Shown here piece by piece: positions 55,307 through 60,245 of a stretch of 64,000 nt of DNA. Position numbers and translations under genes: made by a program. The notes below the pieces were generated by a model. That model was not told where the DNA came from and made no database searches. It saw nothing but the letters and a program-made list of their open reading frames with translations. Origin of the DNA: Methanolobus chelungpuianus. Lineage in GTDB: Archaea; Halobacteriota; Methanosarcinia; Methanosarcinales; Methanosarcinaceae. Position 1 is the first letter of the stretch; each line of letters starts with the position of its first letter. The DNA lies in NCBI RefSeq assembly GCF_024500045.1, contig NZ_JTEO01000002.1, forward strand, positions 124,001 through 188,000, in the 5' to 3' direction.

Positions 55307-55483
55307 ATGCCAGCTATTGTTGATAAAGAACTGTGTACAGGATGCGGGGTCTGTGTGGATTCCTGCCCGGTAGAAGCGATCTCAATGACCGATGAAGACC
55401 TCGCATTTGTTGATCCGGATACATGCGTTGACTGTGGGGATTGTGTGGAGATATGTCCTGTTGAAGCTATTTCCCTGAAATGA
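55307..55483 (+). CDS. Small 2[4Fe-4S] ferredoxin
   Basis: 58 residues with two classical cluster motifs, CTGCGVCVDSCPVEAI (cysteines 10, 13, 16, 20) and CVDCGDCVEICPVEAI (40, 43, 46, 50). Every ligand is present. This is the clostridial-type low-potential ferredoxin used in methanogens with CODH or hydrogenases. GGGAGTGA is 7 nt before the ATG. Single gene with its own promoter. The partner is not visible nearby; NifH reduction or CODH are possibilities. Confidence 0.95.
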   Translation: MPAIVDKELCTGCGVCVDSCPVEAISMTDEDLAFVDPDTCVDCGDCVEICPVEAISLK

Positions 55484-55607: not shown

Positions 55608-56135
55608 ATGGATGAAAGTAAAGCAAAGGACGGCATGAGAACAAAAGACATTGGTGAAGGGCTTGTCATCACCCGCACCTTCGATGTACCTCGGGCTCGT
55701 GTATGGAAAGCGTGGACAGAGCCTGAAGAAGTAAAGCAGTGGTGGGGACCAAAAGGTTTCACATCACCTTTTGACAGGATAGACCTTCGTGTTGGAGGCT
55801 CCTATCTCTTCGGCATGCGATCACCTGAAGGAGATGACTACTGGAGCACCGGTGTTTACCGTGAGATAGAGCCACCGGAGAGGATCGTAGCTACCGATTC
55901 CTTTGCTGACGAGAACGGGAAAGTGGTCCCGGCTTCTTACTACGGTATGAGTGAGCAGTGGCCTCTTGAAATGCAGGCGACGTTCATGTTCGAAGAGCAG
56001 GGTGGCAAGACTAAGCTTACCCTCAGTTACCTGGATATTGATAATATAAGTGACACTGACCGGGAAAATATGAAGCAAGGGTGGAACGAATCCCTTGACA
56101 AACTATCTCAGCATCTGGAAAAAACCAAGTGTTAA
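55608..56135 (+). CDS. SRPBCC (AHSA1-like) domain protein
   Basis: 175 residues from the ATG at 55608 with AGGGGG 8 nt upstream. The AHSA1 pattern is clear: VITRTFDVPRARVWKAWTEP, KQWWGPKGFTSP, RVGGSYLFGMRSPEG and the C-terminal helix GWNESLDKLSQHLEK. Such proteins bind hydrophobic ligands or act as stress co-chaperones. A paralogue follows after about 50 nt, giving a tandem pair. Ligand unknown. Confidence 0.9.
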   Translation: MDESKAKDGMRTKDIGEGLVITRTFDVPRARVWKAWTEPEEVKQWWGPKGFTSPFDRIDLRVGGSYLFGMRSPEGDDYWSTGVYREIEPPERIVATDSFADENGKVVPASYYGMSEQWPLEMQATFMFEEQGGKTKLTLSYLDIDNISDTDRENMKQGWNESLDKLSQHLEKTKC

Positions 56136-56186: not shown

Positions 56187-56669
56187 ATGACTAAAATCGA
56201 TTTTAGCGTTGACAAAGAGAAGCTTGAAGTCGTGATGACGCACGTCTTTAACGCGCCCCGTGACGTGGTATGGGAAGTCTACACAAATCCGGATATGATA
56301 CCCCAATGGTGGGGACCAGGAAATATGACCACAACTGTCGATAAAATGGAAGTCAAGGAAGGCGGTGTCTGGAGGTACATACAGAAGGATGAGCAAGGCA
56401 ATGTGAATGGGTTTCACGGAGTCTATAAGGAAGTAAGGGAACCTGAGTTCCTTTCTGATACATTCAACTATGAACCGGTTGGTCCCGGGCACGAGTTAAC
56501 GGAAACGCTAAGACTTGAAGAAATAGGAGAAGGAAAGACAAGAGCGGTTTCCACTTCTTATTTCAATTCAATTGAAGATATGGAAGGAGTGATGCAGCCC
56601 GGGATGGAAGAGGGAGCAGCCGAAACATACGACCGTTTCGATAAATTGCTGGAAAAGATACTAAAATAA
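56187..56669 (+). CDS. SRPBCC (AHSA1-like) domain protein, tandem paralogue
   Basis: 160 residues. VMTHVFNAPRDVVWEVYTNP, PQWWGPGNMTTTVDKMEV, GVWRYIQKDEQGN and the ending AETYDRFDKLLEKILK match the preceding protein's fold but with clear divergence, so the duplication is old. GAGGG is upstream of the ATG. It probably shares a transcript with the first copy. Function unknown. Confidence 0.9.
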   Translation: MTKIDFSVDKEKLEVVMTHVFNAPRDVVWEVYTNPDMIPQWWGPGNMTTTVDKMEVKEGGVWRYIQKDEQGNVNGFHGVYKEVREPEFLSDTFNYEPVGPGHELTETLRLEEIGEGKTRAVSTSYFNSIEDMEGVMQPGMEEGAAETYDRFDKLLEKILK

Positions 56670-56762: not shown

Positions 56763-57210
56763 ATGACAGACGGTTCTCTCACTAAACTACTTCAGGATAC
56801 GGCTTCTGAAATGAATGCATATCTCTTTGGTATTGCAACACCTGTCCTGTTCTCTGGACCCCGGGTATACCGGAAACAAATCTCAGGATGTGATGTAGGA
56901 TGTGCGATCAGTCATTATTCCTGGAGTAGCCGTGCCTTGCGGGGCTTTCGAGTCACTTCCGGCAGGAAGGGCCGAATACACCAACACGCTCATGGCAGCC
57001 ACTGCAACCCTCCGGCTGATTGCATTCCAGCTGGCCGGGCTCATTGAGACGAACAGTTACAGTGTAATGATAGTGCCTGCAGAGGGTGCGAGTTAGATAC
57101 TGGTATGCAGATCGGGAAACGCTCAAGGCGGATATGCCCATTAAGCGCGCAGCCTGTCATGCAGGACTAGGTGACCTGTGCTGCGGACTGAAGGTATGTC
57201 CGCATGAATA
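56763..57210 (+). pseudogene. Decayed Fe-S protein gene (QueG/epoxyqueuosine-reductase-like), frameshifted and truncated
   Basis: Three fragments in different frames read as one family protein. Frame 1 from the ATG at 56763 gives LLQDTASEMNAYLFGIATP. Frame 2 from about 56902 gives RSVIIPGVAVPCGAFESLP then TLMAATATLRLIAFQLAGL and ends at a stop near 57094. Frame 3 from about 57090 gives RYWYADRETLKADMPIKRAA and HAGLGDL. The order matches methanogen proteins related to epoxyqueuosine reductase. The C-terminal ferredoxin part is missing, cut near the end of the kinase gene. At least two frameshifts are needed. Confidence 0.7.
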
Positions 57211-57217
57211 TGCCTTT

Positions 57218-59872
57218 CTATGTGCGCTGTTCAGCTGTTGCCTTCACAGTCTTCCCGGTGCGCGTGTCTGAAACATCCTTTCTGATCCTTTCAAGTGTGG
57301 CAATGAGGGCCTCTTTTGGCACAGGCTTGATGAAATAATCCACTGTCCCCCACACTTTACCCATTTCCTTCTCGTCAAGCATGGAAGTGATGATCACAGG
57401 TATGTCCTTTGTCTGTTCCTCATCTTTCAGATGCTTCAGGACATCCCATCCATCCATGCCAGGCATCATGAGGTCGAGGGTGATGGCAAACGGTTTCAGT
57501 TTGCCGGCAAGCAGTAGTGCTTCTTTTCCGCAGCAAGCGGATGCTACCCGGTAGCCTTCCCTTTCCAGGGTGGCTTCGATGAGCTCTCTTGAATTATCAT
57601 CGTCCTCCACCACGAGGATCAGTGGTTCGGCACCAATTATAGCTGCTGAATTGCCTGTGCCGTGAGCAGGCCGACCCTCCAAGCCATCAACCTCGTGTGT
57701 CTCTTCCGGGATCGCTTCCTCATTCATGCTTTTGATCAGGGGCAGTTCGAATGTAAAGGTTGTACCCTCTCCTGGTTTACTCTCAACCCATATGCGCCCG
57801 TTCTGGATCTCCACGAACTTCTTTACGAGGGAAAGCCCAAGCCCGGTTCCCTCGTACTGCCTGTTGATAGCAGAATCCAGTTGTGTGAATGGCTGGAAAA
57901 GCTTGCTGATGTCTTCATCGGATATCCCTATTCCCGTATCCCTGACCACAAAGACAGCCATGTCTCCCTTCTGGCTTGCATGCACACTCACGCTCCCGTC
58001 CTTGGGTGTGAACTTTATAGCATTGCTGATCAGGTTGAAGAGTATCTGCTTGAACCTGGTCTTATCGGCATAGATCGTCTCGAGCCTGTCATCTTTGAAA
58101 AACTCAACCCTGAGCTGCTTTTTCACAGCCATGGGCGAGATGAGCTGCCTTACTTCAATGAATACTTCTGCGACAGAGAACAGCTGGTTATCAAGTTCCA
58201 TCTTGTTTGCTTCTATCTTGGAGATATCCAGCACATTATTTATGATCGACAGCAAATGTTTGCCGCTTGCTGCTATATTCATGATGAACCGCTTCTGGGT
58301 GTCGGATATTTCTCCGGTGCCTCCGCTTGTTATCAGCTCAGAGAAGCCGATAATGGAGTTGAGCGGTGTTCTCAGTTCGTGGCTCATGGTTGTAAGGAAA
58401 TCACTCTTGGCACGGTTTGCAGCTTCTGCTGTGATCCTGGCCTGGATGAGTTTCTCCTCTGCGTCCTTCATTTTTGTAAGGTCGACAAAGCTCTCTATGA
58501 AATAGTCCTTACCCTGGAGGGTCACGGGCACTACTGATTTGAGAACCCAGACTTTCTGACCCTGGGCATTGATGATCATGCGTTCGGACCTGTTCACGCT
58601 CATTCCAAGGTCGCTTATCGGGCATTTACCTTTCTCGGCGGGGCATATGAAATCATGACACTCCCTGCCCACTATCTTTTCCTTCGGCAGGCCGATGATC
58701 TCTTCGGCAGCAGGGTTCACATCGACTATCACATGTGTGTGAGAATCCAGAATTATAGCTCCGCTGATTATGTTTGTAAGTACTGCTTCCATCTTCTGCT
58801 GGTTCTCACGCTCTACAGCCTGTATCTTCTCCTTATTCTGCTCCAGCGATTGCAGCATGTAATTGATATTGTCTGCAAGCATGTACAGTTCGTCGTCCCC
58901 GTCCATCCTCACACGGGAAGAGAGCGATCCGCTCTCGGTAATAGCGCTAAGGTTACTGCTCAGGAGCGTCAGGCGTGACAGCACGGATTTTTCTATCATT
59001 AACATGAGAACTATCCCATAGATAGCTCCTATAACGATTATAGCATACAACACGTAATGTACGGCAGACTGTCCCTGCCGGTACACATCCCTTGGCATTT
59101 CCACATCCAGGGCCAGTGAAGGAACACCGTTGATGTCTTTCAATATTGCAGTGCCGATGACAGTGCTTTCATCCATATAATCGATTCTTATGGGGTCACT
59201 GCCCTGGGCCCGGGTTGAGCCTTGAAATGCAGCTGGGGCCTCAGGCTCCAGATCGCTGACACTGATGGACAGCTGGGTAATGCCCCCCATTTCTTCAACA
59301 AATTCAGGATCAAGGAACCTTGCAATGACGATAGTACCTGCAACCGTCGGGTCCGTCGTACTTGGAGTTATAGCACTTGTCCCGACTATCATGGGACCTT
59401 CAGGAGTGCTTATGATGCCTGAGACATATTTTCCGAGGGAGGGTTCTGAATATAGCATTTCTTCTTTGCTTATATAATCCCTGAAAATATCTGTTATTTG
59501 CCTTTCTTCATAGGCATGATGATCCACTCCTGCAATGTAGTACAGTTCGCCTGAGGCATCAAAGAACATCATCATGTCTATCTCCAGATTAGACAGGGAT
59601 CCTACGTCAAGGTTATTTTCAATATAAGCATCGTCCCCATGCATAAAATAGAACGTGTCACTCCACTGGCCCCAGTCCTTTGCTGTGGCTGTAAGGCGCT
59701 TTGTCTGGGAGTCAACAGCTTCAGTAGCCCTGAGAACATTCTTTGTGACCTCTCTTTCCTCAAGCTGTGAAAAGCTGTCATGCATTATCGACCCGGTGAT
59801 CACTGCAAGCAGGACGAACAGACAGATGAAGGTCACGGTAAGGAATATGAGAGTCCTGTTGCGTATCTTCAG
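57218..59872 (-). CDS. Membrane hybrid sensor kinase: CHASE4, HAMP, PAS, kinase, receiver
   Basis: 884 residues if read from a CTG at 59872, which has GGAGG 8 nt upstream and gives a complete signal anchor (KIRNRTLIFLTVTFICLFVL). The first ordinary start is a GTG at 59836 with no site and a shortened membrane helix. An extracellular CHASE4-like domain (WGQWSDTFYFM) lies at about 35-240, second membrane helix near 272-294, HAMP, PAS (VIVDVNPAAEEIIGLP), phospho-His in TMSHELRTPLNS near 496, ATP domain with DTGIGISDED and GTGLGLSLVKKF, and a receiver with Asp in LDLMMPGMDGWD near 797. Paired with the response regulator just upstream. Confidence 0.9.
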   Translation of the reverse strand: MKIRNRTLIFLTVTFICLFVLLAVITGSIMHDSFSQLEEREVTKNVLRATEAVDSQTKRLTATAKDWGQWSDTFYFMHGDDAYIENNLDVGSLSNLEIDMMMFFDASGELYYIAGVDHHAYEERQITDIFRDYISKEEMLYSEPSLGKYVSGIISTPEGPMIVGTSAITPSTTDPTVAGTIVIARFLDPEFVEEMGGITQLSISVSDLEPEAPAAFQGSTRAQGSDPIRIDYMDESTVIGTAILKDINGVPSLALDVEMPRDVYRQGQSAVHYVLYAIIVIGAIYGIVLMLMIEKSVLSRLTLLSSNLSAITESGSLSSRVRMDGDDELYMLADNINYMLQSLEQNKEKIQAVERENQQKMEAVLTNIISGAIILDSHTHVIVDVNPAAEEIIGLPKEKIVGRECHDFICPAEKGKCPISDLGMSVNRSERMIINAQGQKVWVLKSVVPVTLQGKDYFIESFVDLTKMKDAEEKLIQARITAEAANRAKSDFLTTMSHELRTPLNSIIGFSELITSGGTGEISDTQKRFIMNIAASGKHLLSIINNVLDISKIEANKMELDNQLFSVAEVFIEVRQLISPMAVKKQLRVEFFKDDRLETIYADKTRFKQILFNLISNAIKFTPKDGSVSVHASQKGDMAVFVVRDTGIGISDEDISKLFQPFTQLDSAINRQYEGTGLGLSLVKKFVEIQNGRIWVESKPGEGTTFTFELPLIKSMNEEAIPEETHEVDGLEGRPAHGTGNSAAIIGAEPLILVVEDDDNSRELIEATLEREGYRVASACCGKEALLLAGKLKPFAITLDLMMPGMDGWDVLKHLKDEEQTKDIPVIITSMLDEKEMGKVWGTVDYFIKPVPKEALIATLERIRKDVSDTRTGKTVKATAEQRT

Positions 59873-59873
59873 G

Positions 59874-60245
59874 TTATTTTCCTCCAGCTGACACGTATGA
59901 CAGAACCTTGCCTACAAAGGTAGGAACATCGATCGGCTTTGAGATATACCCTGAGCAGCCTGCACTGATGAACTTCTGTTCGTCTCCCTGCATAGCATGG
60001 GCTGTCAGTGCGATTATAGGAGCGCCCATGGATTCAATATTATTTATATTCCTGATCACTTCGATGCCGTCCATCCCCGGTAGCTGGATATCGAGCAGTA
60101 TAAGGTCAAAACAATTGTTCCTTATTTTGTCAAGTGCCTCCGGTCCATCAAAGGCCTGCATGACCTCGATACCTCCGGCCGTGAGAATAAAGGTGACAAG
60201 CTCCATGTTCATGGGGTTGTCCTCTACAACAAGTACTCTGGTCAT
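59874..60245 (-). CDS. Single-domain response regulator
   Basis: 123 residues, only a receiver domain. Acidic pocket VLVVEDNPMN, phospho-acceptor Asp in LILLDIQLPGMDG near 52, Thr/Lys switch residues in ALTAHAM and YISKPID. No output domain, so it relays phosphate or acts by protein contact, like CheY or DivK. Its stop codon is one base from the kinase gene's likely CTG start, so the two are translated together. Confidence 0.94.
   Translation of the reverse strand: MTRVLVVEDNPMNMELVTFILTAGGIEVMQAFDGPEALDKIRNNCFDLILLDIQLPGMDGIEVIRNINNIESMGAPIIALTAHAMQGDEQKFISAGCSGYISKPIDVPTFVGKVLSYVSAGGK

What the first reader, a model, noticed from the sequence alone, without database searches (positions are those of the whole stretch)
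56763..57210. Frameshifted, C-terminally truncated QueG-like Fe-S gene
Three consecutive fragments in different frames together spell a recognisable protein, so the gene has at least two frameshifts and lost its ferredoxin end. The fragments are still readable, so the decay appears recent.
Basis: seen in the sequence. Interest (0 to 1): 0.5.

Follow-up and report, generated by a model that had tools for sequence, protein, structure and literature searches.

The report
Dead iron-sulfur gene in a methanogen
A methane-making archaeon carries the broken remains of a small iron-sulfur gene that a close relative still has whole at the same spot; it is an ordinary gene relic, though the family it belongs to is little understood.

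Summary
The window lies in a Methanolobus genome. Positions 56763 to about 57203 are a pseudogene of a 228-residue Fe-S protein that is intact at the same place in a sister Methanolobus MAG (L012). The C-terminal codons probably survive at 57175-57203, so the "truncation" is an internal deletion. On this branch 19 of 25 assigned changes are nonsynonymous, the neutral share, and 10 of 59 invariant residues are altered. Sequencing error does not explain that; the neighbouring genes, the AHSA1 pair apart, align openly with the sister's at 79-99% identity. "QueG" is only a superfamily resemblance: intact relatives score far below the QueG cut-off, lack its DYH motif and are predicted to be a compact QueG/reductive-dehalogenase-type fold. 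Of 27 Methanolobus genomes, ten have an open copy, two a broken one, fifteen none at orthologue level. Three congeners have the same neighbourhood without the gene. Verdict: an ordinary decayed accessory gene.

The parts
56763..56836 (+). Pseudogene, first piece: N-terminal codons 1-25 of the 228-codon family, in frame from the ATG
   Evidence: alignment to L012
56837..56837 (+). One-base frameshift relative to the intact sister gene (placement uncertain by a few bases)
56838..57086 (+). Pseudogene, second piece in another frame, about codons 25-108
   Evidence: 83% amino-acid identity to L002 (the same gene as L012) over 65 residues
56896..56898 (+). In-frame amber TAG at a position that is lysine 45 in the sister gene; the genome encodes PylS, so amber need not stop translation
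57087..57093 (+). Second frame change: two one-base losses
57093..57174 (+). Pseudogene, third piece, about codons 111-138
57166..57175 (+). Junction of the internal deletion of about 234 bases (78 codons, with the first Fe-S motif); the intact gene has CTGGG at both borders, 234 bases apart
57175..57203 (+). Probable C-terminal remnant (reads ..CCGLKVCP; intact sister ..RCGLCVKVCPL), with a further 6-base loss and no stop codon in place
   Evidence: 0 of 2000 shuffles reach its score against the C-terminal region; 142 of 2000 for the alternative placement
55614..56135 (+). Flanking AHSA1-family gene a (context)
   Evidence: PF08327 E=3.6e-35
56187..56669 (+). Flanking AHSA1-family gene b (context); not found at the sister MAG's locus, and the three gene-free congener loci have a single AHSA1 gene, closest to gene a
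   Evidence: PF08327 E=1.2e-23
57218..59836 (-). Flanking hybrid histidine kinase (context), converging on the pseudogene
   Evidence: shared with L012

Best explanation
It is a non-functional relic (pseudogene) of a stand-alone accessory gene for a compact cobalamin-reductase-type Fe-S protein. Shown: the sister lineage keeps an intact copy at the same place; this copy has several disabling lesions and an excess of nonsynonymous change at the neutral share; no other copy of the orthologue was found in the genome. Inferred: the gene entered the gap between an AHSA1 gene and a histidine kinase in the common ancestor of the two lineages, was dispensable in this one, took up frameshifts, an amber codon and missense changes, and lost its middle, probably by slippage or recombination between two short CTGGG repeats 234 bases apart. 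The order of the lesions is not known. The intact protein probably binds base-off cobalamin and two [4Fe-4S] clusters and carries out or supports a reduction (inference from predicted fold and Cys motifs).
For: Intact orthologue in the same neighbourhood. Neighbouring genes there: six at 95.6-98.8% identity, kinase 79%, regulator 82%, ferredoxin 98%. Lesions placed by alignment. On 135 codons dN is 0.105 and dS 0.343; the six neighbours have dN 0.005-0.023 at dS 0.11-0.38. Polarised with four congeners: window branch 19 nonsynonymous (the amber change counted as one if assigned) and 6 synonymous, sister branch 2 and 8, 22 differences unassigned; Fisher p = 0.0056. Without frameshift-adjacent codons 15/5 against 1/7, 21 unassigned, p = 0.0042. 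10 of 59 residues invariant in 11 intact copies are changed, two of them beside the second frameshift. The own genome otherwise has only a distant paralogue, G000:C11:44607-45293, an open 254-residue frame, and weak matches that mostly cover the Fe-S motifs. Neighbourhood without the gene in G015, G040 and G021.
Against: No reads or expression data. With a wider outgroup (seven genomes, five agreeing, frameshift-adjacent codons left out) the contrast weakens: 14 nonsynonymous and 4 synonymous on the window branch against 3 and 3 on the sister branch, 25 unassigned. The C-terminal remnant is short; two of eight other intact copies scored better with the other placement. Gain rather than loss at this site rests on three gene-free loci and on the lack of widely shared neighbours; a resident gene lost in those three is not excluded. 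The sister genome is a MAG.
Confidence: 0.94

Rival explanations
1. Sequencing or assembly errors in an intact gene.
For: Three of the lesions are single-base indels; the genome is a 71-contig assembly and no reads were available.
Against: Single-base indels, an amber codon and a 234-base deletion sit in about 440 bases, while eight neighbouring window genes are open and align with the sister's, six over the whole gene (or all but five residues) and two cut only by the ends of L012 (the AHSA1 pair has no full counterpart there). Changes hit 10 of 59 invariant residues and follow the neutral share; errors would not give that.
Confidence: 0.03
2. A working gene read with recoding: amber read as pyrrolysine plus programmed frameshifts.
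For: PylS is encoded, and the only in-frame stop in the aligned codons is TAG. The Methanolobus halotolerans copy also has one TAG (G012; identified with L029 by its contig length).
Against: The ten intact copies of the genus are open without frame changes or stops. The internal deletion removes the first Fe-S motif and the 6-base loss probably takes a terminal cysteine. The M. halotolerans copy also has a frame break, at another place. The nonsynonymous share is neutral.
Confidence: 0.02
3. A damaged copy that arrived by transfer and never worked in this lineage.
For: No neighbour is shared by more than 6 of the 33 public loci of the family, and the position was shared only with the sister among the loci examined.
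Against: The sister has an intact copy at the same position with 83% identity in the middle piece and synonymous divergence like the neighbours (0.34 against 0.11-0.38), so the common ancestor most simply had an intact gene there.
Confidence: 0.05

Closest known systems
QueG, tRNA epoxyqueuosine reductase (TIGR00276)
   Same: Predicted fold of the intact relative aligns with B. subtilis QueG 5d0a over 205 residues, Z 18.1, rmsd 3.1; two Cys motifs for [4Fe-4S] clusters in 25 of 27 aligned relatives (L041 and L042, cut by contig ends, would be the two without)
   Different: 46.3-52.2 bits against a cut-off of 200; PF08331 not matched; the QueG-specific DYH motif described in PMC4646009 (passages read) is in 0 of 27; 228 residues, aligned to QueG residues 2-249 only, so without its C-terminal part
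Reductive dehalogenase RdhA (TIGR02486; PceA 4UQU, NpRdhA 4RAS)
   Same: Fold matches Z 14.7-15.9 over 192-203 residues; sequence match of the Fe-S half, E=7.3e-14 to 8q4h
   Different: 51.1-52.7 bits against a cut-off of 160.35; about half the length of PceA (464 residues in 4uqu)
CblC/MMACHC B12-processing proteins
   Same: Nitroreductase-type core, Z 7.9-10.3
   Different: No Fe-S clusters in CblC (recalled); 7-8% identity in the alignments
Broken copies of other members of the same family, e.g. Methanolobus halotolerans SY-01 (L029), Methanosarcina sp. DH2 (L040)
   Same: Broken frames in the same gene family
   Different: Breaks elsewhere in the gene, so probably independent losses

Membership tests
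Pseudogene of the compact methanogen class-III-type Fe-S protein | Reading frame interrupted relative to an intact orthologue | tested here: met
Pseudogene of the compact methanogen class-III-type Fe-S protein | Loss of purifying selection on this branch | tested here: met
   19 nonsynonymous, 6 synonymous against 2 and 8; weaker with a wider outgroup, 14/4 against 3/3
Pseudogene of the compact methanogen class-III-type Fe-S protein | No transcript or protein made | not testable with these tools
   no expression data
QueG (tRNA epoxyqueuosine reductase) | Score over the curated TIGR00276 cut-off | tested here: not met
   46.3-52.2 bits against 200 in four intact relatives; own genome has no match over the cut-off
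QueG (tRNA epoxyqueuosine reductase) | QueG_DUF1730 domain (PF08331) | tested here: not met
   no match in own genome, in the three fragments or in the six relatives scanned
QueG (tRNA epoxyqueuosine reductase) | DYH catalytic motif | tested here: not met
   0 of 27 relatives; all 27 have EYT at residues 71-73
QueG (tRNA epoxyqueuosine reductase) | Nitroreductase-type cobalamin module with two [4Fe-4S] sites | tested here: met
   by predicted fold and Cys motifs of the relatives only; cofactors not tested
Reductive dehalogenase RdhA | Score over the TIGR02486 cut-off | tested here: not met
   51.1-52.7 bits against 160.35
Reductive dehalogenase RdhA | Reductive dehalogenation activity | not testable with these tools
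   needs biochemistry

The most novel reading that the evidence does not exclude
The dead gene belongs to a distinct, minimal branch of class-III cobalamin reductases found in methanogens: 228 residues, no C-terminal extension like QueG's, unknown substrate. It moves between genomes as a single gene (patchy presence, no widely shared neighbours, two Methanolobus copies grouping with Methanococcoides and Methanohalophilus ones) and is repeatedly gained and lost, this locus being a caught case of gain followed by decay.
Probability: 0.45. Interest if true: 0.35.

Novelty: new member of a known kind. Interest (0 to 1): 0.14.

Why it matters
As a pseudogene it matters little: it shows that the gene is dispensable in this species and warns against annotating it as queuosine machinery. 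The side result is worth more. Ten congeners keep the frame open, others lack or have lost the gene, and the intact protein is predicted to be a compact relative of QueG and reductive dehalogenases without a known substrate. Species with and without it make a natural comparison for finding its role.

Tried and rejected
Pfam and NCBIfam scans of the three fragments found nothing; only full-length relatives identified the family. Aligning the tail of the pseudogene to the first Fe-S motif (the placement chosen by the low-gap-cost global alignment) was rejected because simple shuffles of the tail score as well in 142 of 2000 cases, against 0 of 2000 for the C-terminal placement. Among eight other intact copies the C-terminal placement scored higher in six and lower in two (L016, L017). 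A search for conserved neighbours (frames of 80 residues or more; many loci have short flanks) found no cluster in more than 6 of 33 loci. Whether the gene was transferred from another genus could not be settled: L012 and the window piece form a supported pair, but its place among Methanolobus and Methanosarcina copies is unresolved. Row dropped: the ferredoxin was entered one base out of frame; its values were not used, and the gene was compared. NadA had no hit because it lies beyond the end of L012. Literature: five searches of the paper library showed 15 of 30, 7 of 7, 12 of 51, 10 of 321 and 7 of 7 papers; none of the shown titles or abstract starts is about this protein family in methanogens. 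Only passages of PMC4646009 were read; the other papers were seen as listings.

Full report
What is there. The window is 124001-188000 of contig C2 of a 2.6 Mb, 71-contig genome. Its genus is Methanolobus by inference: contigs of congeners match named Methanolobus contigs in length, for example G023:C46 (70,032 bases) and JASKKT010000002.1, Methanolobus sp. DJKA59_ANT-F21_bin.26 (L012), whose gene is identical to that of G023. The middle piece of the reported gene (56899-57093) matches an open frame in 10 of 39 relatives, best 1.5e-28 with 84% identity in G023 (the tally of 11 of 40 counts the own genome; one of the ten, G012, is open only over part of the gene).

Anatomy of the decay. In L012 the intact 228-codon gene lies in the same order of genes: ferredoxin, AHSA1 gene (cut down), Fe-S gene, histidine kinase, response regulator. 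Against it the window copy has a one-base frameshift near 56837, an amber codon at 56896-56898, and two one-base losses at about 57087 and 57093. Then about 234 bases are missing, and a probable remnant of the C-terminal end follows at 57175-57203. The remnant fits the C-terminal codons (0 of 2000 shuffles as good) better than the first Fe-S motif (142 of 2000 as good). Two of eight other intact copies preferred the other placement, so this step is likely rather than certain. In L012 the borders of the missing stretch both carry CTGGG, 234 bases apart, which fits a deletion between short direct repeats (inference).

Selection. Over 135 aligned codons dN is 0.105 and dS 0.343. Six neighbouring genes have dN 0.005-0.023 and dS 0.11-0.38; the kinase and regulator have dN 0.114 and 0.106 at dS 0.74 and 0.80. 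With four congeners as outgroup, 19 nonsynonymous and 6 synonymous changes fall on the window branch and 2 and 8 on the sister branch, with 22 unassigned. The window's share, 19 of 25, equals the 76% expected without selection; Fisher p = 0.0056. Leaving out codons next to the frameshifts gives 15/5 against 1/7 with 21 unassigned. On that reduced set, seven outgroups with five agreeing give 14/4 against 3/3 with 25 unassigned, so the contrast with the sister is weaker there. Ten of 59 residues invariant in 11 intact copies are altered, two of them next to the second frameshift where the alignment is less sure. Sequencing errors would not produce this pattern.

Amber codon. The genome encodes PylS, so TAG alone need not end translation. 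The frameshifts and the internal deletion still disable the gene.

Distribution. The own genome also has a distant paralogue, an open 254-residue frame on C11. In the 33 public loci, judged by eye on single-frame translations, frames are broken in L029, L034 (at the very end), L035, L040 and, by one stop, L038; four more (L036, L039, L041, L042) run off contig ends. No neighbour is shared by more than 6 of the 33. In the tree two Methanolobus copies group with Methanococcoides and Methanohalophilus ones. G015, G040 and G021 share the chemoreceptor-ferredoxin-AHSA1-kinase neighbourhood, partly with damaged or diverged genes (CDC48 seen in two of the three, the third stretch ending before it), and have a single AHSA1 gene and no Fe-S gene there. 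I read this as gain in the ancestor of the window genome and G023 followed by decay here; loss in those three is the alternative.

What the intact protein is. Pfam finds only Fe-S binding domains in the six relatives scanned. NCBIfam gives the reductive dehalogenase and QueG models at 46-53 bits against cut-offs of 160 and 200 in the four scanned. AlphaFold2 on 27 relatives gave pLDDT 81.6 and pTM 0.83, with residues 63-68 and 109-119 under 50. The model aligns with QueG (Z 18.1, 205 residues), PceA (15.9) and NpRdhA (15.1), and more weakly with CblC (up to 10.3). QueG's DYH motif (PMC4646009, passages) is absent in 27 of 27. The QueG model rings in 9 of 14 control genomes, over its cut-off in 7; the list does not mark which two lie below, but seven of the nine, all bacteria, are those that also have PF08331, so the two are presumably the methanogens Methanocaldococcus jannaschii and Methanosarcina acetivorans. 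In the own genome it matches only the C11 paralogue, at 68.6 bits, under the cut-off. The same paper describes archaeosine as the archaeal modification and queuosine as that of bacteria and eukaryotes. The gene is best called a compact class-III-cobalamin-reductase-like Fe-S protein of unknown substrate.

Verdict. An ordinary pseudogene, well supported, of a poorly characterised accessory family.

Noticed in passing
window 57218-60245: The histidine kinase and response regulator next to the pseudogene are far more diverged from the sister MAG (dS 0.74 and 0.80) than six other genes nearby (0.11-0.38), suggesting allele replacement or faster change.
   Followed up: no
L012:5671-5895: In the sister MAG the AHSA1 gene is cut down and the second AHSA1 gene is not found at the locus: this small region decays in both lineages.
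   Followed up: partly
L088, L089: In G040 and G021 the corresponding histidine kinase is itself split between frames with stop codons, and the neighbouring chemoreceptor is diverged.
   Followed up: no
L029:6001-6649; L040:1920-2604: Broken copies of the same Fe-S gene, with breaks at other places, in Methanolobus halotolerans SY-01 and Methanosarcina sp. DH2.
   Followed up: partly
L038:3438-4091: A Methanomassiliicoccaceae MAG copy is open except for one in-frame stop codon; which stop it is was not checked, nor whether it is read as pyrrolysine.
   Followed up: no
window 55307-55483: A small intact two-cluster ferredoxin gene (58 residues), 98% identical in the sister MAG, stands upstream.
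   Followed up: partly
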